DNA from: Intrasporangium calvum DSM 43043
Lineage (GTDB): Bacteria; Actinomycetota; Actinomycetes; Actinomycetales; Dermatophilaceae
Direction of reading: 5' to 3'
DNA length: 64,000 bases
Assembly (NCBI RefSeq): GCF_000184685.1
Contig: NC_014830.1
Coordinates: 2,480,001 to 2,544,000, forward strand
The notes beneath the pieces are model-generated. The model was not told where the DNA came from, did not search any database, and saw only the letters and a program-made list of their open reading frames with translations. How positions within the stretch are numbered: position 1 is the first letter of the stretch; the number at the start of each line of letters is the position of its first letter. Positions 482-63,382 of the stretch are shown piece after piece. Both the position numbers and the translations under genes were made by a program.

Positions 482-561
482 ATCGAAAGAGCAGTTCGTC
501 CCGCTGCTGCCACGGTCAAGGTCGACGTGGGTGCGAAGGCGGGACGAACTGCTCTTTCGAT
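482..561. repeat. Long-stem hairpin repeat, family A, after fadD
   Basis: Perfect 22-base arms (482-503 and 540-561, arm ATCGAAAGAGCAGTTCGTCC plus CG) enclose a 36-base loop. The element begins 5 bases after the stop codon of the acyl-CoA ligase gene and lies upstream of the radical SAM gene. There is no T tract, so it is not a classical intrinsic terminator. Related copies are at 9920-10050, 15893-15964, 25924-25997 and 61365-61444. Confidence 0.85.
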
Positions 562-9919: not shown

Positions 9920-10050
9920 ATCGAAAGAGCCGTTCCTCGCCTCGATCGAGAGAGCAGTTCGTCCCGGGTCGGGACACTCGGCGCGCTCGAGGCGCGCCGG
10001 ACGAACTGCTCTCTCGATCGTGAGGAGGGGGGACGAACTGCTCTTTCGAT
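9920..10050. repeat. Two nested family A hairpins between nusA and ylxR
   Basis: The outer left arm begins at 9920 (ATCGAAAGAGCCGTTC, degenerate) and pairs with 10031-10050 (GGACGAACTGCTCTTTCGAT). Inside it, GATCGAGAGAGCAGTTCGTC at 9944 pairs perfectly with 9999-10019. The inner pair reads GAGAGAG where other copies read GAAAGAG, and its partner arm carries the matching change. The outer right arm ends 2 bases before the nusA stop codon. Confidence 0.85.
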
Positions 10051-10052
10051 CG

Positions 10053-11072
10053 TCAGGCGGGGGGTGGGGGCGTCGCCTCGGTGTCGGGCCGGATGTCGAT
10101 CCGCCAGCCGGTCAGCTTCGCGGCGAGCCGGGCGTTCTGGCCCTCCTTGCCGATGGCGAGGCTGAGCTGGTAGTCGGGCACGACGACCCTGGCCGTGCGA
10201 GCCGCCGCGTCGACGATCTCGACGGACTGCACCCGCGCCGGGGAGAGCGCTGCCGCGACGAACGTCGCCGGGTCCTCGGAGTAGTCGACGATGTCGATCT
10301 TCTCGCCCCGCAGCTCGGTCATGACCGCGCGGACCCGAGCGCCCATCGGCCCGATGCACGCGCCCTTGGCGTTGACGCCGGGCACCTTGGAGTGCACGGC
10401 GATCTTCGTCCGGTGCCCCGACTCGCGAGCGAGGGCAGCGATCTCGACCGTGCCGTCCGCGATCTCGGGCACCTCGAACTTGAACAGGGTGCGGACCAGG
10501 TTGGGGTGGGTCCGGGACAGCCCGACCTGCGGACCCCGCGGTCCACGTTTGACGCTGACGACGTAACAACGGAGACGCTCGCCGTGAACGTAACGCTCCC
10601 CCGGCACCTGCTCGGCGAGCGGCAGAATGCCCTCGACCGCACCGAAGTCCACGAGGACGTTGCGCGGGTCCTGGCTCTGCTGGATGACGCCTGAGATGAC
10701 GTCACCCTCCCGGCCCTTGAAGTCGCCGAGGATCTGCTCGTCCTCGAGGTCGCGGAGGCGCTGCACGATGACCTGGCGCGCCGTCGAGGCGGCGATCCGA
10801 CCGAAGCCGACCGGGGTGTCGTCGAACTCCGGCCCCGGCTCGCCCCGCTGTGGCCGCTCGCCTTCCTCTGCGGGAAGGAGGTCGCCCTCCTCGCGGGCCC
10901 AGACGACGACGTGACCGGTCTTGCGGTCGAGCTCGACCCTGGCGCTGCGGTAGCTGCCCTCGGTGCGGTGGTAGGCGACGAGGAGGGCCTGCTCGATGGC
11001 GGGGATGAGCACATCGAGGCTGATCCCCCGCTCCCGCTCGAGGGCCCGGAGTGCGGCAAGGTCGATGTCCAT
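10053..11072 (-). CDS. nusA: Transcription termination/antitermination factor NusA
   Basis: A 339-residue NusA, which binds RNA polymerase and nascent RNA to modulate pausing, termination and antitermination. The order is N-terminal domain ([17 protein letters not shown]), an S1 domain around residues 130-195, and KH domains with [21 protein letters not shown] and [19 protein letters not shown]. The C-terminal acidic repeats of enterobacterial NusA are absent, as usual in Gram-positive bacteria. Its ATG overlaps the rimP stop by one base (TGATG), so the two are probably translationally coupled. Confidence 0.97.
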
Positions 11073-13896: not shown

Positions 13897-15882
13897 ATGA
13901 GCAACCGACTCGCTGCGGCGACCAGCCCGTACCTGCTCCAGCACCGGGACAACCCGGTTGACTGGCAGGAGTGGGGAGAGTCGGCCTTCGCCGAGGCGCG
14001 TGAGCGCAACGTCCCGGTCCTCCTCTCCGTCGGCTACGCCGCGTGCCACTGGTGCCACGTCATGGCGCACGAGTCGTTCGAGGACGAGGCGGTGGCGCAG
14101 GCGCTCAACGAGCGTTTCGTGTCGGTCAAGGTGGACCGGGAGGAGCGGCCCGACATCGACGCGGTCTACATGGCGGCGGTCACGGCGACGACCGGTCACG
14201 GCGGGTGGCCGATGACGTGCTTCCTCACTCCCGAGGGCGAGCCGTTCTTCTGCGGCACGTACTTCCCGCGGGACCACTTCCTCCAGCTCGTCGCCGCCGT
14301 CGACGAGGCGTGGCGGACACGTGAGGAGGAGGTCCGCGCCTCCGGCCTCCACATCACCAGCGCCCTTCGCGAGGGGCTGGCCAGCCCTGAGCCGTATGCC
14401 GCTGGGCTCGCCGATCTCGACCGCGCCGTCACGCTGTTGTCGGGTCAGTTCGACTCTGGTGCGGGTGGTTTCGGTGGTGCGCCGAAGTTCCCCCCGTCGA
14501 TGGTGCTGGAGTTCCTGCTGCGCCACCATGGCCGGACGGGGGACGACGTGTCTCTGGCCATGGCGGACCGGACGCTCGAGGCGATGGCCCGGAGCGGGAT
14601 GTACGACCAGGTCGGCGGCGGTTTCGCCCGCTACTCCGTCGATGCGAAGTGGGTCGTGCCGCACTTCGAGAAGATGCTCTACGACAACGCGCTGTTGCTG
14701 CGGGTCTATGCGCACTGGTGGCGCTTGGGCCAGAACCCCTTGGCGGAGAAGGTCGCCCGGGAGACGGCCGAGTTCCTGCTCACCGAGCTGCGCACGACAG
14801 ACGGCGGGTTCGCGTCGTCCCTCGACGCCGACACGCAGGGCGTCGAGGGCCTGACCTACGTGTGGACCCCCGCCCAGCTCGCCGAGGTTCTCGGCGAGGC
14901 GGACGGAGCACGGGCGGCCGACCTCTTCTCCGTGAGCGAGCACGGGACCTTCGAGCACGGCACCTCGACGCTCCAGCTCCTCACCGACCCCGACGACCGG
15001 GAGTGGTTCAGAGACGTGCGGACCCGGTTGGCGCAGGCGCGGGCGAAGCGGCCCCAACCGGGCCGCGACGACAAGGTTGTCACCTCGTGGAACGGGCTCG
15101 CCATCACCGCCCTCGCGGAGGCCGGGGCCATCTTCGAGGAGCCTGCCTGGGTCGCCGCTGCCGTGGCCTCCGCGAATCTCGTCCTCGACCTGCACGTCGT
15201 GGACGGTGGCCTGCGGCGCGCCTCCCGAGACGGTCGGGCCGGTGCAGCCGCCGGCGTGGCGGACGACTACGGAAACGTGGCCGAGGGGCTGCTGTCGCTG
15301 CACCAGGCGACGGGCGAGGCGCGCTGGCTCACCGTCGCGGGCCACCTGCTCCGACAGGCTCGGGACCGGTTCGGGGCAGAGGACGGTGGCTTCCACGACA
15401 CCGCGGCGGACGCCGAACAGCTCTTCCTGCGTCCGCGCAGTGGGGCGGACAACGCCGAGCCGTCCGGCCAGTCAGCCATCGCGGTCGCCCTCGTCACCCT
15501 CGGCGCGCTGACCGGTGACCCGGAGGCCATCGAGGCGGGGCGCCGCGGCATCGACGCCGGCATGGGGCTGGCGCGCCGGGAGCCGCGGTTCGGCGGCTGG
15601 ACGCTGGCCGGCGCCGAGGCCCTTGCGGCCGGCCCGCTGCAGGTCGCCGTCGTCGGGAGCGGACCGCAGGCCCAGGCCTTGGCGCGCACGACCCACCTGG
15701 CGACGAGCCCCGGCCTCGTCATGGTCCATGGTGCCCCCGACTCGCCCGGGATCCCCCTGCTCGAGGGACGGCCGCTCGTGGGAGGCAACCCAGCGGCATA
15801 CGTCTGCCGTGGCTTTGTCTGCGACCGACCGGTGACCACTCCAGGGGAGCTCTCGGCCGCGCTCTCGGCACGCACCCCCTGA
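13897..15882 (+). CDS. Thioredoxin-domain protein YyaL (DUF255)
   Basis: A 661-residue protein of the YyaL/SPATA20 family. The N terminus begins [19 protein letters not shown], then [20 protein letters not shown] places a CxxC motif near residue 50, as in a thioredoxin-like domain. The remainder is an (alpha/alpha)6-barrel-like region related to N-acylglucosamine epimerases ([29 protein letters not shown]). Two copies of the dispersed 15-base word lie inside the gene, encoding PYAAGL near residue 167 and NPAAYV near the end. It converges on apbE, and a family A hairpin separates the two. The biochemical role of the family is not established. Confidence 0.88.
14394..14408 (+). repeat. Dispersed 15-base word, exact copy inside yyaL-like gene
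   Basis: GTATGCCGCTGGGCT, followed by CGCC. In the gene's frame it encodes Tyr-Ala-Ala-Gly-Leu, using the TAT codon that is otherwise rare in this GC-rich DNA. Confidence 0.9.
15787..15801 (-). repeat. Dispersed 15-base word, near copy inside yyaL-like gene
   Basis: AACCCAGCGGCATAC is one base off the reverse complement of the word. It encodes Asn-Pro-Ala-Ala-Tyr near the C terminus of the DUF255 protein. Confidence 0.65.
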
Positions 15883-15892
15883 GGCCGCCACC

Positions 15893-15964
15893 CATCGAAA
15901 GAGCAGTTCGTCCCGGTCCGAGACGTGGACTCACGGTGCGAGGGGACCAACCGCTCCTTCGATG
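15893..15964. repeat. Family A hairpin between convergent genes, one arm degenerate
   Basis: The left arm (CATCGAAAGAGCAGTTCGTC, from 15893) matches the family exactly, while the right arm (GGGGACCAACCGCTCCTTCG, from 15942) has several differences, leaving an imperfect stem. It lies 11 bases after the yyaL-like stop and 2 bases before the apbE stop, so it could serve as a bidirectional terminator. Confidence 0.8.
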
Positions 15965-25923: not shown

Positions 25924-25997
25924 ATCGAAAGAGCAGTTCGTCCCCCACTCCGGCGCGGCTGGTGCCGCGCCCAAGGGGGACGAACTGCTCTTTCGAT
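25924..25997. repeat. Family A hairpin between M50 protease gene and ispG
   Basis: Perfect 23-base arms (25924-25946 and 25975-25997) with a 28-base loop. It ends 2 bases before the stop of the protease gene and lies just upstream of the ispG -10-like hexamer at 25910-25915, so it could end one transcript next to the start of another. Confidence 0.88.
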
Positions 25998-25999
25998 GG

Positions 26000-27346
26000 T
26001 TAGCCGAAGATGCTGATCGGCTTGACGATGTCCGCGTAGATCAGCAGGACGGACATGGTGATGAGCACGAGGGACATTCCGTAGGCGATGGGCAGACCCT
26101 TGGCCACGTCCACGTAGCCCGGATCGGGGCGGTTGCGCAGCTTGGCCCAGCCACGCTTGACCGCCTCCCACATCGCACCCGCGACGTGGCCCCCGTCGAG
26201 CGGCAGGAGGGGGATGAGGTTGAAGACGAAGAGGGCCAGGTTGAGCGACGCGATGAGCAGGACGAGCTGGGCGATCTTCAGCCAGTTGCCGCCCTCGTCG
26301 GCCGGGATGTCGAGCGCCGCGACCTCGCCACCGATCCGGCCGACGCCGACGACCGAGATGGGGCCGTTGGGATCGCGTTCGCCGGACCCGAAGGCCGCCT
26401 CGGCCACACCGACCATCTTCTCCGGGATGCGCCAGATGACGGAGGCGGTGTCGACGACCCGGTCCCAGACGAAGCGGGGTGCCTCCAAGAGCGGTGTCGT
26501 CACGAGCTCCTGCCCGGGCGTGATGCCCATGAAGCCGACGCTCTTGAGGACGAGCTTCCCGTCCTGGGTGACGGGTGCTCCCTGCTCGTCGAGGGTGGCC
26601 CGCTCGAGCCGGGCCGGGGTCACGGTGAGGGTCACCTCCTCGCCGCCGCGCTGCACGACGAACGTCATCGGCGATCCGCCGCTGTCCCGGATCGCGGCGG
26701 CCACCGCGGTCCACGTGCTGACCGGCGCGCCGTTGATGGCGACGATCCGGTCGTTCTCTCGCAAGCCGCCCAGCTTGGCCGGTGCGGCGGGATCACCGGG
26801 CGCGCAGGCAGGGTGCGGGTCGGCCACCGTGGGGGTCGCCGTGGGCACGCACTCGGAGATCAGCCCCACCTTGGGCACGACCTGCGGCAGTCCGTAGAGG
26901 GTGATGACGCCGGTGATGAGCACGAAACCGATGAGCAGGTTCATCAGCGGGCCGCCGAGCATGACGACGACCTTGCGGCCGGGGCTCAGCTTGTAGAAGA
27001 CCCGGTCCGCGTCCTCTGGTCGGACCTCCTCCATCGAGTCCGCCCGAGCCTGGTCGACCATCTGGCTGAACCGCCCTGTCGAGACGGTGCGCAGCTGGCC
27101 CTCGACGTCGCCGGGGCGCGGGGGCAGCATCCCGACCATCCGGACGTAGCCGCCGAGCGGGATCGCCTTGATGCCGTACTCGGTCTCGCCGCGCCGGCGG
27201 GACCAGATCGTCGGACCGAAGCCAACCATGTACTGCGTCACCTTGACGCCGAACTTCTTGGCCGGCACGAGGTGGCCGATCTCGTGCAGCGCGATGGACA
27301 GCGCCACACCAACGACCACGACGAGGACCCCTATGAGAAACAGCAC
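26000..27346 (-). CDS. Site-2 (M50) intramembrane metalloprotease, RseP/Rip1-like
   Basis: A 448-residue membrane zinc protease. The first membrane helix contains the zinc motif [18 protein letters not shown], and the C-terminal helix has [19 protein letters not shown] with the third ligand Asp. A PDZ domain (around [17 protein letters not shown]) lies between. Relatives cleave anti-sigma factors and other membrane proteins in regulated intramembrane proteolysis. GTG at 27346 lies 6 bases after GACAAT; upstream codons run into a hairpin without similarity. It sits in the conserved dxr-protease-ispG order. Confidence 0.93.
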
Positions 27347-38278: not shown

Positions 38279-38323
38279 GAGGTGCTCCCGGGGTGAAAGC
38301 GAAGGGGTGGGGGGAAACGGGTC

Positions 38324-38385
38324 CGTATGCCGCTGAGCTGGCTCTCGAGGTGAGCTGACCCGGGGAGCGAGCCCAGCGGCATACG
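38324..38385. repeat. Inverted pair of the dispersed word (hairpin) after the aldehyde dehydrogenase gene
   Basis: GTATGCCGCTGAGCT at 38325-38339 (one mismatch) and an exact reverse copy AGCCCAGCGGCATAC at 38370-38384 face each other. Together with flanking bases they form a stem of about 17 base pairs with one mismatch. It lies 32 bases after the stop of the aldehyde dehydrogenase gene and upstream of potD. Confidence 0.8.
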
Positions 38386-38417
38386 GCTCAGTGACTGCTC
38401 ACGACCGACTCAGGTGC

Positions 38418-41880: not shown

Positions 41881-41917
41881 CCCGGCCGCCACGGGACTCG
41901 CGGTGGGCGGGCGAGCG

Positions 41918-41957
41918 AGCCCAGCGGCATACGACCCATTCCGTATGCCGCTGGGCT
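41918..41957. repeat. Inverted pair of the dispersed word (tight hairpin) after the aminotransferase gene
   Basis: AGCCCAGCGGCATAC (41918-41932) and GTATGCCGCTGGGCT (41943-41957) are both exact, separated by 10 bases, and pair perfectly. The hairpin lies 37 bases after the aminotransferase stop, so it probably functions as a terminator. Confidence 0.85.
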
Positions 41958-41983
41958 GGCTCCCGCACGCCGCCTTCCTCCGC

Positions 41984-42051
41984 AACACACCCGGATAGCG
42001 ACTGCCGGTACCGCCTATGGGCGGCCCAGGCGCGCGACAACCGGGTGTGTT
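41984..42051. repeat. Family B hairpin upstream of the Gly/Asp-rich gene
   Basis: AACACACCCGG (41984-41994) pairs with CCGGGTGTGTT (42041-42051). A second copy with the same AACACACCCG edge lies downstream of the gene, at 42827-42894. Confidence 0.75.
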
Positions 42052-42813: not shown

Positions 42814-42826
42814 TCCCTCGCCACGT

Positions 42827-42894
42827 AACACACCCGCTTACCGTCTGCTCGTGCCGGCTGCAACCAGAACCATCACGCGGTAAGCGGGTGTGTT
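42827..42894. repeat. Family B hairpin between convergent genes
   Basis: A perfect 17-base arm, AACACACCCGCTTACCG (42827-42843), pairs with 42878-42894. It lies 13 bases after the Gly/Asp-rich gene and 14 bases before the stop of the AEC transporter gene, so it could end both transcripts. Confidence 0.85.
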
Positions 42895-42908
42895 GCGAGG
42901 GGACGGGT

Positions 42909-60015: not shown

Positions 60016-61269
60016 TCAGGCGTCGGCCGGGATCTTGCCGGACATCGACATGGCGGGGGGAAGGCCGAGCGGGCGGCCGGGGAGCAGCATGTTCCAGTAG
60101 ATGTGCCGGAAGGCGAGCTTGCCCAGGTGGTTGGCGCGCGACTCCTTCAGCAGCGTCATCGGGCCGATCTTCGGCAGCGGGAACGTGCCGGTGAGCGGCT
60201 GCGTGTCGTAGTTGAAGTCGAGCAGCAGGGCCTTGCCGCCGCCGGACTCGACGAAACAGTTGGCGTGTCCGTCGAAGGAGTGGGTCATCGGCTTGCCGGC
60301 GATGAGCTCCATGAAGTTCTCGACGAAGATCTCTACGGAGAAGTGCGCGACCGAACCGGCCTTCGACGTCGGGATGTTGCTCGCGTCGCCGAGGGCGAAG
60401 ACCTCGGGGAACTCCGTCGACTGCATCGTGTGCTTGTCGACCGGGACGTAGTTGAGGTCGTCCCCGAGGCCGGACCGCGCCACGAACTCCGCGCCCATGT
60501 TGAGCGGGATGGTCACGAGCTGGTCGAAGGGGACCTCGCGCTCGTCGTACGAGATGAGGACCTTGCGCTCCTGGTCGATGCTCTCGACCATGAAGTCCGT
60601 CTCGACCGTGACGTTGCGCTCCTTGAGGATGTGGCCGAGCTCCTTGCTCGCCACTGGCTTGGTGAAGGCGCCGTCAAGCGGGGTGACGAAGACGATCTCC
60701 GTCTTGTCCCGCAAGCCGCGCTCACGGAGGTAGTCGTCGGCGAGGAAGGTGAACTCGAGCGGAGCCACCGGGCACTTGAACGGCAGCTCGGTGATGTGCA
60801 CGACGAGTCGGCCGCCCTTGAAGGCGCGCATCTGGTCGCGCAGGGCGACGGCGCCGTCGTAGGTGTAGAACTCGCCGACCGACTTGTGCCATTCGTCGCC
60901 GAGCATCCCAGGGGTCTGGTCGGGGCGGGGACTCGTGCCCGAGGCGACGACGAGGTAGTCGTAGGAGAGCGTCCGCCCGTCCGTCAGGGCGACGGTCTTG
61001 GCCCCGGGATCGACCTTGTCGATCTCGGCGAGGACGAGGTCGACGCCATCACCGATGAACGCGTGCTTCGTCTTGCGGATCTGCTCGGGCGTGTTCATCC
61101 CGAACGGGATGAAGAGGTAACCCGGCTGGTAGTCGTGGATATCGGTCTTGTCGACAACCGTGATCGTCCAGTCGGTCTTGGGGAGACGGTGGCGGAGCTT
61201 GTTCGCGACCATGGTTCCGGCCGTGCCCGCGCCCAGCACCACCAGGGTTTTCTTCGTTGCGGTGGTCAT
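60016..61269 (-). CDS. sqr: Sulfide:quinone oxidoreductase-like flavoprotein
   Basis: A 417-residue FAD protein of the SQR/FCSD family, which oxidises sulfide to persulfide or sulfur and reduces quinone. LVVLGAGTAGTMVANKLRHR binds FAD, DYQPGYLFIPFGMNTPEQIR and LVVASGTSPRPDQTPGMLGD follow, and FALGDASNIPTSKAGSVAHF is the second FAD contact. Only two Cys are present (in LPFKCPVAPLEF and HANCFVES), as in short SQR types. ATG at 61269 lies 11 bases from a palindromic site. It is first in the sulfur operon. Confidence 0.88.
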   Translation of the reverse strand: MTTATKKTLVVLGAGTAGTMVANKLRHRLPKTDWTITVVDKTDIHDYQPGYLFIPFGMNTPEQIRKTKHAFIGDGVDLVLAEIDKVDPGAKTVALTDGRTLSYDYLVVASGTSPRPDQTPGMLGDEWHKSVGEFYTYDGAVALRDQMRAFKGGRLVVHITELPFKCPVAPLEFTFLADDYLRERGLRDKTEIVFVTPLDGAFTKPVASKELGHILKERNVTVETDFMVESIDQERKVLISYDEREVPFDQLVTIPLNMGAEFVARSGLGDDLNYVPVDKHTMQSTEFPEVFALGDASNIPTSKAGSVAHFSVEIFVENFMELIAGKPMTHSFDGHANCFVESGGGKALLLDFNYDTQPLTGTFPLPKIGPMTLLKESRANHLGKLAFRHIYWNMLLPGRPLGLPPAMSMSGKIPADA

Positions 61270-61280
61270 GTCACCATCCA

Positions 61281-61296
61281 ATACCCCCGCGGGTAT
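61281..61296. promoter_or_regulatory. CsoR/CstR-type operator upstream of the SQR gene
   Basis: ATACCCCCGCGGGTAT has ATACCC/GGGTAT half-sites with a C/G-rich centre, a pattern reported for CsoR-family repressors including the persulfide sensor CstR. It lies 11 bases before the SQR start, where binding would block transcription. No csoR/cstR gene is in the window. It fits control of sulfide oxidation by sulfane sulfur; assignment of the regulator is an inference. Confidence 0.6.
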
Positions 61297-61323
61297 GGCG
61301 CGATACCATTTCGCCTGTGATCC

Positions 61324-61342
61324 CTACTACAACCAGTAGTAG
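61324..61342. promoter_or_regulatory. TACTAC-N5-GTAGTA operator between SQR and tsf
   Basis: CTACTACAACCAGTAGTAG is a perfect 7-base inverted repeat with a 5-base spacer, 54 bases upstream of the SQR start. It has the same half-sites and spacing as the site at 45233-45249. Confidence 0.6.
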
Positions 61343-61364
61343 AGAGTGCACCAACGTGCCGGAC

Positions 61365-61444
61365 CACATCGAAAGAGCAGTTTGCGACGGGCCGAGCGGG
61401 CCTTGGTCCAGATGGACCGTGTCGCAAACTGCTCTTTCGATGTG
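61365..61444. repeat. Family A hairpin after tsf with changed but matching arm tips
   Basis: Perfect 24-base arms (61365-61388 and 61421-61444). The outer part, ATCGAAAGAGCAGTTT, matches the family, but GCGAC replaces the usual CGTCC at the loop side and the partner arm carries GTCGC, so pairing is kept. It lies 15 bases after the tsf stop. Confidence 0.88.
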
Positions 61445-61459
61445 CCTGGGGTTACGACC

Positions 61460-62290
61460 TCACTGGCCGACGCGGAAGCGCGCGAAACCGGTCGCGGTGG
61501 CGCCGGCCTCCTCGAGCACCTTGGCGACCGTCTTCTTCGGCTCCTTGGCGAACGGCTGCTCGAGCAGGACGTTCTCCTTGAAGTAGCCGCCGACCCGGCC
61601 CTCGACGATCCGGGCGAGGGCAGCCTCGGGCTTGCCCTCCTCACGGGCGGTGGCCTCGGCAACTCGACGCTCGTTCTCGACCGTCTCGGCCGGGACCTCC
61701 TCGCGCGTCAGCACCGACGGGCTGAACGCCGCGACGTGCATCGCGACGTCACGGGCCACCTGCTCGTCGCCGCCCTCGAGCGCAACGAGGACGCCGATCT
61801 GCGCGGGCAGGTCGGGGCTCGTCTTGTGGAGGTAGGAAACGACCTTCTCCCCCTCGAGGCGGGCGACCCGGCGGACCTCGATCTTCTCGCCGATCGTCGC
61901 GTTGGCGTCGTCGAGGAGCTCCTTGACCGTCTTGCCGTCCGCGAGCGTGCTCGCGAGCAGGGACTCGGCGTCGGCTGCCTTGCTGGCCACGGCGTGCGCG
62001 AGGACCTGATCGGCGAGCGCGATGAACTTCTCGCCCTTGGCGACGAAGTCCGTCTCGCAGTTGACCTCGACGAGGGTGCCGACGCCGTCGCCGGCCCGGG
62101 CAGCCACGAGACCGTTCGAGGCCGAGCGGCCCTCACGCTTCGTGACGCCCTTGAGGCCCTTGACCCGGAGGATCTCGACGGCCTTGGCGCGGTCGCCGTC
62201 AGCCTCGTCGAGCGCCTTCTTGACGTCCAACATGCCCGCGCCGGTCTGCTCGCGGAGCGCCTTGATGTCAGCGGCGGTGTAGTTCGCCAT
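61460..62290 (-). CDS. tsf: Elongation factor Ts
   Basis: A 276-residue EF-Ts, the nucleotide exchange factor for EF-Tu. The N-terminal MANYTAADIKALREQTGAGM and LDVKKALDEADGDRAKAVEI are typical, with NCETDFVAKGEKFIALADQV in the core and a C-terminal KPEAALARIVEGRVGGYFKE. It follows rpsB after 63 bases, the near-universal order. A family A hairpin lies immediately after its stop, and an unrelated sulfide module follows instead of pyrH. Confidence 0.97.
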   Translation of the reverse strand: MANYTAADIKALREQTGAGMLDVKKALDEADGDRAKAVEILRVKGLKGVTKREGRSASNGLVAARAGDGVGTLVEVNCETDFVAKGEKFIALADQVLAHAVASKAADAESLLASTLADGKTVKELLDDANATIGEKIEVRRVARLEGEKVVSYLHKTSPDLPAQIGVLVALEGGDEQVARDVAMHVAAFSPSVLTREEVPAETVENERRVAEATAREEGKPEAALARIVEGRVGGYFKENVLLEQPFAKEPKKTVAKVLEEAGATATGFARFRVGQ

Positions 62291-62353: not shown

Positions 62354-63382
62354 TCAGGCCTGCTCGGCCGGAACCTCGGTCGCCTCGCTCGACTCGGCCG
62401 GAGCCTCGACAGCCTCAGCGGCAGCCTCGGGGGCGGCGGCCTCAGCGGTCTCGACCGGAGCCTCGGTCGCCTCGCTCGACTCGGCCGGAGCCTCGACAGC
62501 CTCAGCGGCAGCCTCGGGGGCGGCAGCCTCCGTGGTGGCTCCCTCAGCTGCGGGCGTCACCTCGGGGGCGGCAGGCTCGGCAGCGTCGGTGGCCACAGCC
62601 CCGTCCGCGGTGACAGCAGCCTCGGCGTAGAGCTCGCGCTCCCACTCGGCCAGGGGCTCCTCGACGCCGGCCTCCACACCGGAGCGGCCGGTGGACCGCT
62701 GGACGAGGCCCTCGGCAACGGCGTCAGCGATGACCCGCGTCAGCAGGGCGACGGAGCGGATCGCGTCGTCGTTGCCCGGGATCTTGTAGTCGACCTCGTC
62801 GGGGTCGCAGTTCGTGTCGAGGATCGCGATGACGGGCAGTCCGAGCTTGCGCGCCTCGTCGACGGCGAGGTGCTCCTTCTTGGTGTCGACGATCCACACC
62901 GCGGAGGGAACCTTGCTCATCGTGCGGATGCCGCCCAGGGTCTTCTCGAGCTTGTCCTTCTCGCGCTTGAGGATGAGCAGCTCCTTCTTCGTGTAGCCCG
63001 AGCCGGCCACGTCGTCGAAGTTCAGCTCCTCGAGCTCCTTGAGGCGCGTGAGGCGCTTGGAGATCGTCTGGAAGTTGGTGAGCATGCCACCGAGCCAACG
63101 GTGGTTGACGTAGGGCATCCCGACGCGGGTCGCCTGCTCGGCCACCGGCTCCTGGGCCTGCTTCTTGGTGCCGACGAAGAGGATCGTGCCGCCGTGGGCC
63201 ACGGTCTCCTTGACGAACTCGTACGCGTTGTTGATGTACGTCAGCGACTGCTGCAGGTCGATGATGTAGATGCCGTTGCGCTCGGTCATGATGAAGCGCT
63301 TCATCTTCGGGTTCCACCGGCGGGTCTGGTGCCCGAAGTGGACGCCGCTCTCCAGGAGCTGGCGCATGGTGACGACGGCCAT
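62354..63382 (-). CDS. rpsB: 30S ribosomal protein S2 with repeated Ala/Glu-rich C-terminal tail
   Basis: A 342-residue S2. [40 protein letters not shown] and [20 protein letters not shown] are diagnostic. ATG at 63382 follows AAGGAGGACACGGC. The conserved body ends near residue 235-250; the last 80 or so residues are Ala/Glu/Pro/Thr-rich and contain two near-identical 29-residue repeats beginning [20 protein letters not shown]. Such acidic tails on S2 occur in several actinobacteria. The 291-base region upstream, shared with a divergent gene, holds its leader. Confidence 0.96.
62374..62530 (-). repeat. 87-base-period duplication in rpsB
   Basis: The segments 62374-62443 and 62461-62530 differ at about one base in 70. 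The period is 87 bases (29 codons), so frame is kept. Near identity indicates a recent duplication or ongoing gene conversion. Confidence 0.9.

What the first reader, a model, noticed from the sequence alone, without database searches (positions are those of the whole stretch)
61365..61444. Compensatory changes in a family A stem
In this copy the inner five bases of the left arm (GCGAC instead of CGTCC) differ from the family, and the right arm carries exactly the complementary bases, giving a 24-base perfect stem. Independent mutation would break pairing, so either selection for the stem or conversion between arms is implied.
Basis: seen in the sequence. Interest (0 to 1): 0.6.

Follow-up and report, generated by a model that had tools for sequence, protein, structure and literature searches.

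The report
Hairpin family after bacterial stop codons
In one group of soil actinobacteria the same long hairpin sits just after the stop codon of dozens of genes, and its two arms keep matching each other even though their sequence differs between species; the copy flagged here looks like a member of a second version of that hairpin rather than a freshly repaired one.

Summary
The 24-bp perfect stem at 61365-61444 is real, 15 nt after the tsf stop codon. The genome has 4,024,382 bp, the size published for Intrasporangium calvum 7 KIP.

It is one of 51 arm clusters located there; 45 of 51 lie within 25 nt of a stop codon, 24 between convergent genes. The inner stem has dialects, usually equal on both arms: TCC in 31 of 47 own hairpins, xGA in 8 of 47 (this copy among them) and 22 of 23 from PheN6, TCG in 47 of 49 from Humibacillus. 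So three of this copy's four paired differences are a subfamily mark; the fourth, C-G to T-A, recurs in six other own hairpins.

Covariation over the family is strong, though partly shared ancestry. Where gene order suggests one transcribed strand, leftover transition mismatches lean to G-U in the sense RNA (12:4 at 21 pairs, p 0.038; 8:4 at 17 pairs, p 0.19), without such lean between convergent genes: weak support for selection on an RNA hairpin.

Best reading: transcribed 3'-end hairpins, probably terminators or 3'-end protectors, placed like REPs but lacking the REP tag and, where searched, a REP transposase.

The parts
61365..61388 (+). left arm of the 24-bp stem, CACATCGAAAGAGCAGTTTGCGAC
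   Evidence: xGA (CGA) dialect
61389..61420 (.). 32-nt loop; on the minus strand it is predicted to fold into two small hairpins (61390-61402 and 61405-61418)
61421..61444 (+). right arm, exact reverse complement of the left arm; 15 nt lie between it and the tsf stop codon
61460..62290 (-). tsf, elongation factor Ts, whose 3' end carries the hairpin
   Evidence: PF00889 E 1.2e-70; found in 12 of 12 genomes searched
62354..63382 (-). rpsB, ribosomal protein S2, upstream of tsf
   Evidence: PF00318 E 2.8e-97
60016..61269 (-). pyridine nucleotide-disulphide oxidoreductase family gene downstream of the hairpin
   Evidence: PF07992 E 7.7e-20
482..561 (.). family copy (TCC dialect), 5 nt after the stop of the minus-strand gene 567-2426
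9922..10050 (.). family copy with two arms on each side (the outer left one degenerate), 2 nt after the stop of the minus-strand gene 10053-11072
15894..15963 (.). family copy filling 83% of the gap between convergent genes (stops at 15882 and 15967)
25924..25997 (.). family copy (TCC dialect), 2 nt after the stop of the minus-strand gene 26000-27346; the matching PheN6 site has a hairpin of the xGA dialect

Best explanation
It is one copy of a lineage-specific family of long, transcribed 3'-end hairpins (about 22-24 bp stem, usually a loop of roughly 25-35 nt) placed within a few nucleotides of stop codons. They most likely end transcripts: they terminate transcription, or protect the mRNA 3' end, for one gene or for two convergent genes at once. 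The family spreads and turns over as a paired unit, so both arms of a copy usually carry the same dialect; later point changes are kept paired by selection on the RNA hairpin. The flagged copy is an xGA-dialect member at the 3' end of the rpsB-tsf genes. Shown: the structure, family, dialects, 3'-end placement and covariation. Inferred: transcription through the hairpin, the terminator or 3'-protection function, RNA-level selection, and spread as a unit.
For: Placement: 45 of 51 own clusters within 25 nt of a stop codon, 24 of 51 convergent, against 5 of 55 adjacent gene pairs convergent in the window. Elsewhere, of hairpins with a 3' neighbour, 31 of 43 (Humibacillus), 8 of 13 (PheN6), 12 of 13 (G018) and 2 of 2 (G017) are within 25 nt. 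In 18 of 24 own convergent gaps the element fills at least 69% of the gap. At the tsf 3' end all 12 genomes examined have a predicted strong hairpin within 110 nt (mono-shuffle z -2.4 to -6.0), in the own genome this one. Both arms share the dialect in 39 of 47 own, 22 of 23 PheN6, 47 of 49 Humibacillus and 14 of 15 G018 hairpins. Covariation score 0.202 against 0.070 in shuffles (0 of 500) and at most 0.086 when slid. At 12 matched own/PheN6 sites, 8 have the hairpin in both species, and at 6 of these the dialect differs on both arms. In the Humibacillus pair L095/L107, loop and orientation kept, the pair next to the conserved AT changed from A-T to G-C on both sides. Tandem contexts: sense-strand G-U to A-C 12:4 at depth 21 (p 0.038), 16:6 at depth 25 (p 0.026); convergent 9:12 and 15:16.
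Against: No expression data. No U-tract after the stem; the terminator scan of 60900-61900 found none, but that scan only takes loops of 3-8 nt. The G-U result rests on 16 mismatches at depth 21, is one-sided, was tried at four depths after a first look at fewer hairpins (11:4), is not significant at the 17 outermost pairs (8:4, p 0.19), and Humibacillus alone gives 2:3 at depth 21. Two of the five covariation measures, pairs with a two-sided change (7 against 6.0) and further pair types (16 against 15.1), are not above shuffles. Terminator function alone does not explain why a 13-nt arm core is conserved between copies whose loops are unrelated (own loops: 1.2% of pairs over the 99% null). 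PheN6 has no such hairpin at the tsf site. The L107 stem has a one-sided mismatch of its own.
Confidence: 0.6

Rival explanations
1. The arms match because of the mutation process, not selection: replication template switching or correction of quasi-palindromes copies one arm onto the other, so paired multi-base changes arise in one event (argued for RNA stems in PMC8794818; abstract, start of the introduction and one results section read).
For: Dialect differences are multi-base and on both arms. Stems are nearly perfect in convergent as well as tandem contexts. 2 of 13 Humibacillus orthologous loops match better when flipped, a pattern template switching can leave.
Against: The two flipped loops score no better than non-orthologous pairs (24% and 39% of the null as high). 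One-sided departures outnumber two-sided ones (111 to 68 cells over four genomes). The process does not predict the sense-strand G-U lean, nor why each genome shares one dialect over dozens of loci.
Confidence: 0.2
2. It is a small non-autonomous mobile element (REP- or MITE-like) tolerated at 3' ends because insertion there is harmless; the hairpin serves its movement, not the host.
For: Interspersed, 3'-end placement, stacked arms, related loops in Humibacillus (37% of loop pairs over the 99% null), and turnover between sister species (3 of 12 matched sites without it in PheN6, 1 decayed).
Against: No Y1 transposase (PF01797) in 8 of 8 genomes searched, 5 of which hold the family (G017, G018, G173 and G174 were not searched for it). 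No target-site duplication (2 of 47 flank pairs with an abutting direct repeat of 4 or more, 1.97 expected). 8 of 12 matched sites are occupied in both species, though the PheN6 stretches were chosen because they hold hairpins. No exact match to the hairpin pattern in viral contigs. Other transposase families were not searched.
Confidence: 0.3
3. The arms are binding sites for a sequence-specific DNA- or RNA-binding protein, or signals such as uptake sequences, and the pairing is secondary.
For: The 13-nt arm core is shared by two genera while loops diverge. Extra arms keep the order plus-arms then minus-arms in 47 of 47 paired clusters.
Against: Unpaired arms are rare: 117 of the 123 exact arms seen lie in clusters with both orientations. 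Inner stem positions covary instead of staying fixed. No candidate protein was identified or sought.
Confidence: 0.2

Closest known systems
REP sequences (GTAG- and CGTC-tagged palindromes; PMC3733652, passages found by term, abstract parts included)
   Same: Interspersed palindromes, mostly between convergent or co-directional genes and downstream of coding regions, plausibly transcribed; complementary changes between members.
   Different: Published REPs are 20-40 bp, with 6-13 bp (GTAG) or 8-9 bp (CGTC) stems and an unpaired GTAG or CGTC tag, and are often associated with RAYT transposases. Here the stem is about 22-24 bp, the loop long and variable, no such tag shows in the consensus, and no Y1 transposase was found in 8 genomes.
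U-lacking (I-shaped-like) transcript ends of GC-rich actinobacteria (PMC8269248, passages read)
   Same: Highly structured GC-rich stem-loop without a U-tract; bidirectional transcript ends are reported there.
   Different: Those are defined by shape, not by a shared sequence; here the arm sequence itself is conserved in dozens of copies.
DNA uptake sequence dialects of Neisseriaceae (PMC3630211, passages read)
   Same: A short sequence with lineage dialects, often as inverted pairs associated with terminators.
   Different: The two genomes named in the passages have 943 and 4,265 copies, and intragenic positions are common; here 129 exact arms, nearly all seen in inverted pairs next to stop codons.
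Template-switch maintenance of RNA hairpins (PMC8794818)
   Same: Explains paired multi-base changes in stems.
   Different: A mutation mechanism, not an element family; its loop-inversion signature is not established here.

Membership tests
REP sequence (GTAG/CGTC-tagged) | unpaired GTAG or CGTC tag at one end of the palindrome | tested here: not met
   Alignment A1 (42 copies): consensus ends CAATCG...CGATnG; the two outermost pairs form in 32 of 42 copies each, and CGTC occurs only inside the stem of some dialects
REP sequence (GTAG/CGTC-tagged) | short palindrome, 20-40 bp in all | tested here: not met
   usual element about 75-79 nt with a 22-24 bp stem; some shorter, down to about 50 nt
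REP sequence (GTAG/CGTC-tagged) | Y1 (RAYT) transposase in the genome | tested here: not met
   PF01797: 0 of 8 genomes, 5 of them holding the family; control hits in 5 of 14 known genomes. Not decisive alone: REPs without a RAYT in the same genome exist (recalled)
REP sequence (GTAG/CGTC-tagged) | intergenic, mostly downstream of genes | tested here: met
   45 of 51 within 25 nt of a stop codon
canonical intrinsic terminator | GC-rich hairpin followed by a U-tract | tested here: not met
   hairpin present, no run of T after it on either strand; scan found none, but is limited to loops of 3-8 nt
U-lacking transcription terminator of GC-rich bacteria | transcripts end at the hairpin | not testable with these tools
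   needs 3'-end mapping
MITE or insertion sequence ends | target-site duplication flanking the element | tested here: not met
   2 of 47 against 1.97 expected
DNA uptake sequence | hundreds to thousands of copies, many single and in genes | tested here: not met
   129 exact arms in 4.02 Mb; 117 of the 123 seen are in paired clusters
structured RNA family of Rfam 15 | match above a gathering score | tested here: not met
   0 matches in the window

The most novel reading that the evidence does not exclude
A trans-acting factor reads the arm sequence of these 3'-end hairpins, and the set of sites in a genome changes dialect together as that factor changes, so that both arms at dozens of unlinked 3' ends were rewritten in step between related species (TCC in I. 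calvum, xGA in PheN6, TCG in Humibacillus). This would be a sequence-specific transcript-end system with lineage dialects.
Probability: 0.15. Interest if true: 0.8.

Novelty: new variant of a known kind. Interest (0 to 1): 0.45.

Why it matters
Long hairpins shared by sequence over dozens of 3' ends, with dialects that differ between related species while both arms still match, offer a natural test of how compensatory changes arise: by selection on RNA or by template switching in DNA. They would also be sequence-recognisable 3'-end elements in actinobacteria, where, according to PMC8269248 (passages read), the control of transcript ends has been studied less than in other bacteria.

Tried and rejected
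REP with RAYT: no PF01797 in 8 of 8 genomes and no tag. MITE: no target-site duplication. Carriage by viruses: the exact pattern is absent from viral contigs. Known RNA family: no Rfam match in the window. Loop inversions as a template-switch signature: 2 of 13 better when flipped, neither above the null (the 14th pair, L097/L251, was left out), so inconclusive. Literature: the listings for Intrasporangium with palindromic repeat, Intrasporangium calvum with genome (10 of 12 listed), REP with actinobacteria and terminator, Humibacillus with repeat, REP with RAYT and convergent and interspersed repeats with terminator (10 of 37 listed) showed no title or abstract describing this family, and PMC3733652 names neither Intrasporangium nor actinobacteria in its text (term search). 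This covers the held library only; no bioRxiv, few subscription journals. PMC3035309 (two passages) gives 0 CRISPR repeats. R-scape was not run; shuffles and slides do not fully correct for relatedness.

Sampling limits: alignment A1 was chosen through an exact 13-mer, so the invariance of that core in A1 is by construction. The covariance-model search then found relatives with changed outer arms in G017, G018, G042, G173 and G174, plus weak hits in G079, G088 and G090 that I did not inspect. PheN6 stretches were fetched because they hold hairpins, so 8 of 12 shared sites is biased upwards. Of the 129 exact arms, 6 lie outside what I fetched. Single inexact arms and, clusters without both orientations were dropped. 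Notebook errors: the entry says 13 sites and 9 shared, a recount gives 12 and 8; the entry says '46ish', a recount gives 45. Gene calls come from my own codon-usage script (90% of the window coding).

Full report
Observation. The inverted repeat 61365-61388 / 61421-61444 is exact over 24 bp with 32 nt between the arms. On the minus strand, the strand of the upstream gene, 113 nt around it fold at -62.2 kcal/mol, z -6.6, and the loop is predicted to form two further small hairpins. It lies 15 nt after the stop codon of tsf (PF00889), which follows rpsB (PF00318), and before an oxidoreductase gene. In register, the copy reads AGTT-TGCGAC where most other window copies read AGTT-CGTCCC; four pairs differ and all are paired.

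Where it comes from. The window lies in a single-contig genome of 4,024,382 bases, the size given for the I. calvum type strain (PMC3035309, passage). The core 13-mer occurs 129 times there and never in the reversed control. The exact-hairpin pattern was found in 4 of 186 genomes of the taxonomic family: the own genome, one of the same genus, two of another genus. A scan of named genomes gave only I. calvum PheN6 and two H. xanthopallidus strains (records of the own genome or very near ones may be left out there). A covariance model built from 42 copies matched 12 of 184 family genomes at E <= 0.001; copies in G018, G017, G042, G173 and G174 were read and have the same plan with other arm sequences. 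The exact pattern is absent from viral contigs, and Rfam has no match in the window.

Anatomy. I located 51 clusters in the own genome, holding 123 of the 129 exact arms. 47 clusters have arms in both orientations, in 47 of 47 with plus-arms first and minus-arms after; 17 are simple pairs and the rest have three to seven arms. The other four have one to three arms in one orientation; two of these have a partner arm with three mismatches, and a single arm at 1317810 lies inside a called gene and may be chance. Extra arms can repeat with nearly identical spacers, as if by tandem duplication.

Placement. 45 of 51 own clusters lie within 25 nt of a stop codon, often 2-10 nt or overlapping its last base; 24 are between convergent genes, 23 between co-directional genes, 2 divergent and 2 inside calls. 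In the window 5 of 55 adjacent gene pairs are convergent. Elsewhere, of hairpins with a 3' neighbour, 31 of 43 (Humibacillus), 8 of 13 (PheN6), 12 of 13 (G018) and 2 of 2 (G017) lie within 25 nt (11 at locus edges and one divergent Humibacillus copy are not in these numbers). In 18 of 24 own convergent gaps the element fills at least 69% of the gap.

Dialects. The three bases after AGTTNG fall into types usually shared by both arms: own 31 of 47 TCC and 8 of 47 xGA, with 8 mixed or other; PheN6 22 of 23 xGA and 1 TCC; Humibacillus 47 of 49 TCG; G018 14 of 15 TGC/TGT. xGA pools CGA, TGA and CAA; exactly CGA on both arms, as in the flagged copy, is found in 4 of 47 own hairpins. In the first search the best match elsewhere in the genome was the copy at 3644095 (79% over the whole element), which has CGA on its left arm, CGC on its right, and shares the ACAT...ATGT ends. 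So three of the four paired differences are subfamily identity. The T-A pair occurs on both arms in 7 of 47 own hairpins, with 8 one-sided and 32 unchanged; 2.15 two-sided would be expected if arms varied independently.

Orthologous sites. With flanks 82-93% identical, 12 own sites could be matched to PheN6 stretches. 8 have the hairpin in both. At 6 of these the dialect differs on both arms and, by eye, the loops do not align; at 2 the dialect is the same, one of them with a loop that aligns. One PheN6 copy is decayed and three sites have none, the tsf site among them. Between the two Humibacillus strains 14 sites were matched. In one pair whose loop is kept in the same orientation (score 0.94 of the maximum, above all 156 null pairs; L095/L107) the pair next to the conserved AT changed from A-T to G-C on both sides, a compensatory change in place; the same L107 stem also has a one-sided mismatch. 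Own loops are no more alike than shuffled ones (1.2% of pairs over the 99% null, 37 loops), whereas Humibacillus loops are (37%, 43 loops).

Covariation and its cause. On the 42-copy alignment 96.5% of cells pair, 71 cells are changed on both sides (22.5 in shuffles; 0 of 500 as high) and the covariation score is 0.202 (0.070 in shuffles, at most 0.086 when slid). Pairs with any two-sided change (7 against 6.0) and further pair types (16 against 15.1) are not above shuffles, so the signal is concentrated in a few dialect positions and is partly shared ancestry. To separate RNA selection from DNA-level copying I counted leftover transition mismatches by transcript strand, as judged from gene order. 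A first pass gave G-U 11 to A-C 4 in the sense strand of tandem sites and 7:12 at convergent ones. After adding 20 stretches there were 151 hairpins (66 tandem, 73 convergent, 12 other): tandem 12:4 at depth 21 (p 0.038), 16:6 at 25 (0.026), 19:6 at 30 (0.007), 8:4 at 17 (0.19); convergent 9:12, 15:16, 17:18 and 9:10. By genome at depth 21 the tandem ratio is 4:1 (own), 4:0 (PheN6), 2:0 (G018) and 2:3 (Humibacillus). The direction is the one RNA selection predicts; the numbers are small, four depths were tried, and Humibacillus does not share it at that depth.

Function. The tsf 3' end carries a predicted strong hairpin in 12 of 12 genomes (mono-shuffle z from -2.4 to -6.0), of different families: this one in the own genome, a TATGCCG- or GATGCCG-type hairpin in eight, others in PheN6, G068 and G086. 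That a hairpin persists while its family changes suggests that it does a job at the transcript's end. With no U-tract it would be of the U-lacking type described for a GC-rich actinobacterium (PMC8269248, passages read), or an mRNA 3'-end protector. This is inference; no transcript data were available.

Verdict. The paired change is real, but this copy is best read as an xGA subfamily member rather than a stem repaired base by base. The family is the finding: a sequence-conserved, dialect-forming 3'-end hairpin family, REP-like in placement but outside the REP definition as tested here.

Noticed in passing
window 38323-38386 and 41913-41962; genome-wide: A second hairpin family, TATGCCGC...GCGGCATA, has exact matches in 87 of 184 genomes of the taxonomic family, up to 194 in one (G048), with 0 or 1 for the reversed pattern in the rows shown. 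Similar hairpins lie at the tsf 3' end of eight relatives.
   Followed up: partly
window 41984-42051 and 42815-42906: A third inverted-repeat type with AACACACCCG...CGGGTGTGTT arms; PheN6 has a similar ACACGCCCG...CGGGCGTGT pair downstream of tsf.
   Followed up: no
G000:C1:1250694-1250762 (L195): Three plus-arms in tandem between divergent genes, with no minus-arm within three mismatches in the 460 nt shown.
   Followed up: partly
L065, L067, L083, L095, L104: Humibacillus arrays contain a side type of arm, GAGCACTCCGTCG / CGACGGAGTGCTC, outside the main hairpin.
   Followed up: no
L164 (G174:C448), just after the hairpin at 109-157: Next to a normal copy lies a hairpin with arms reading CGGAGCGTTCTTTCGAT...ATCGAGAGAACGCTCCG, which seems to carry the motif in the opposite order.
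   Followed up: no
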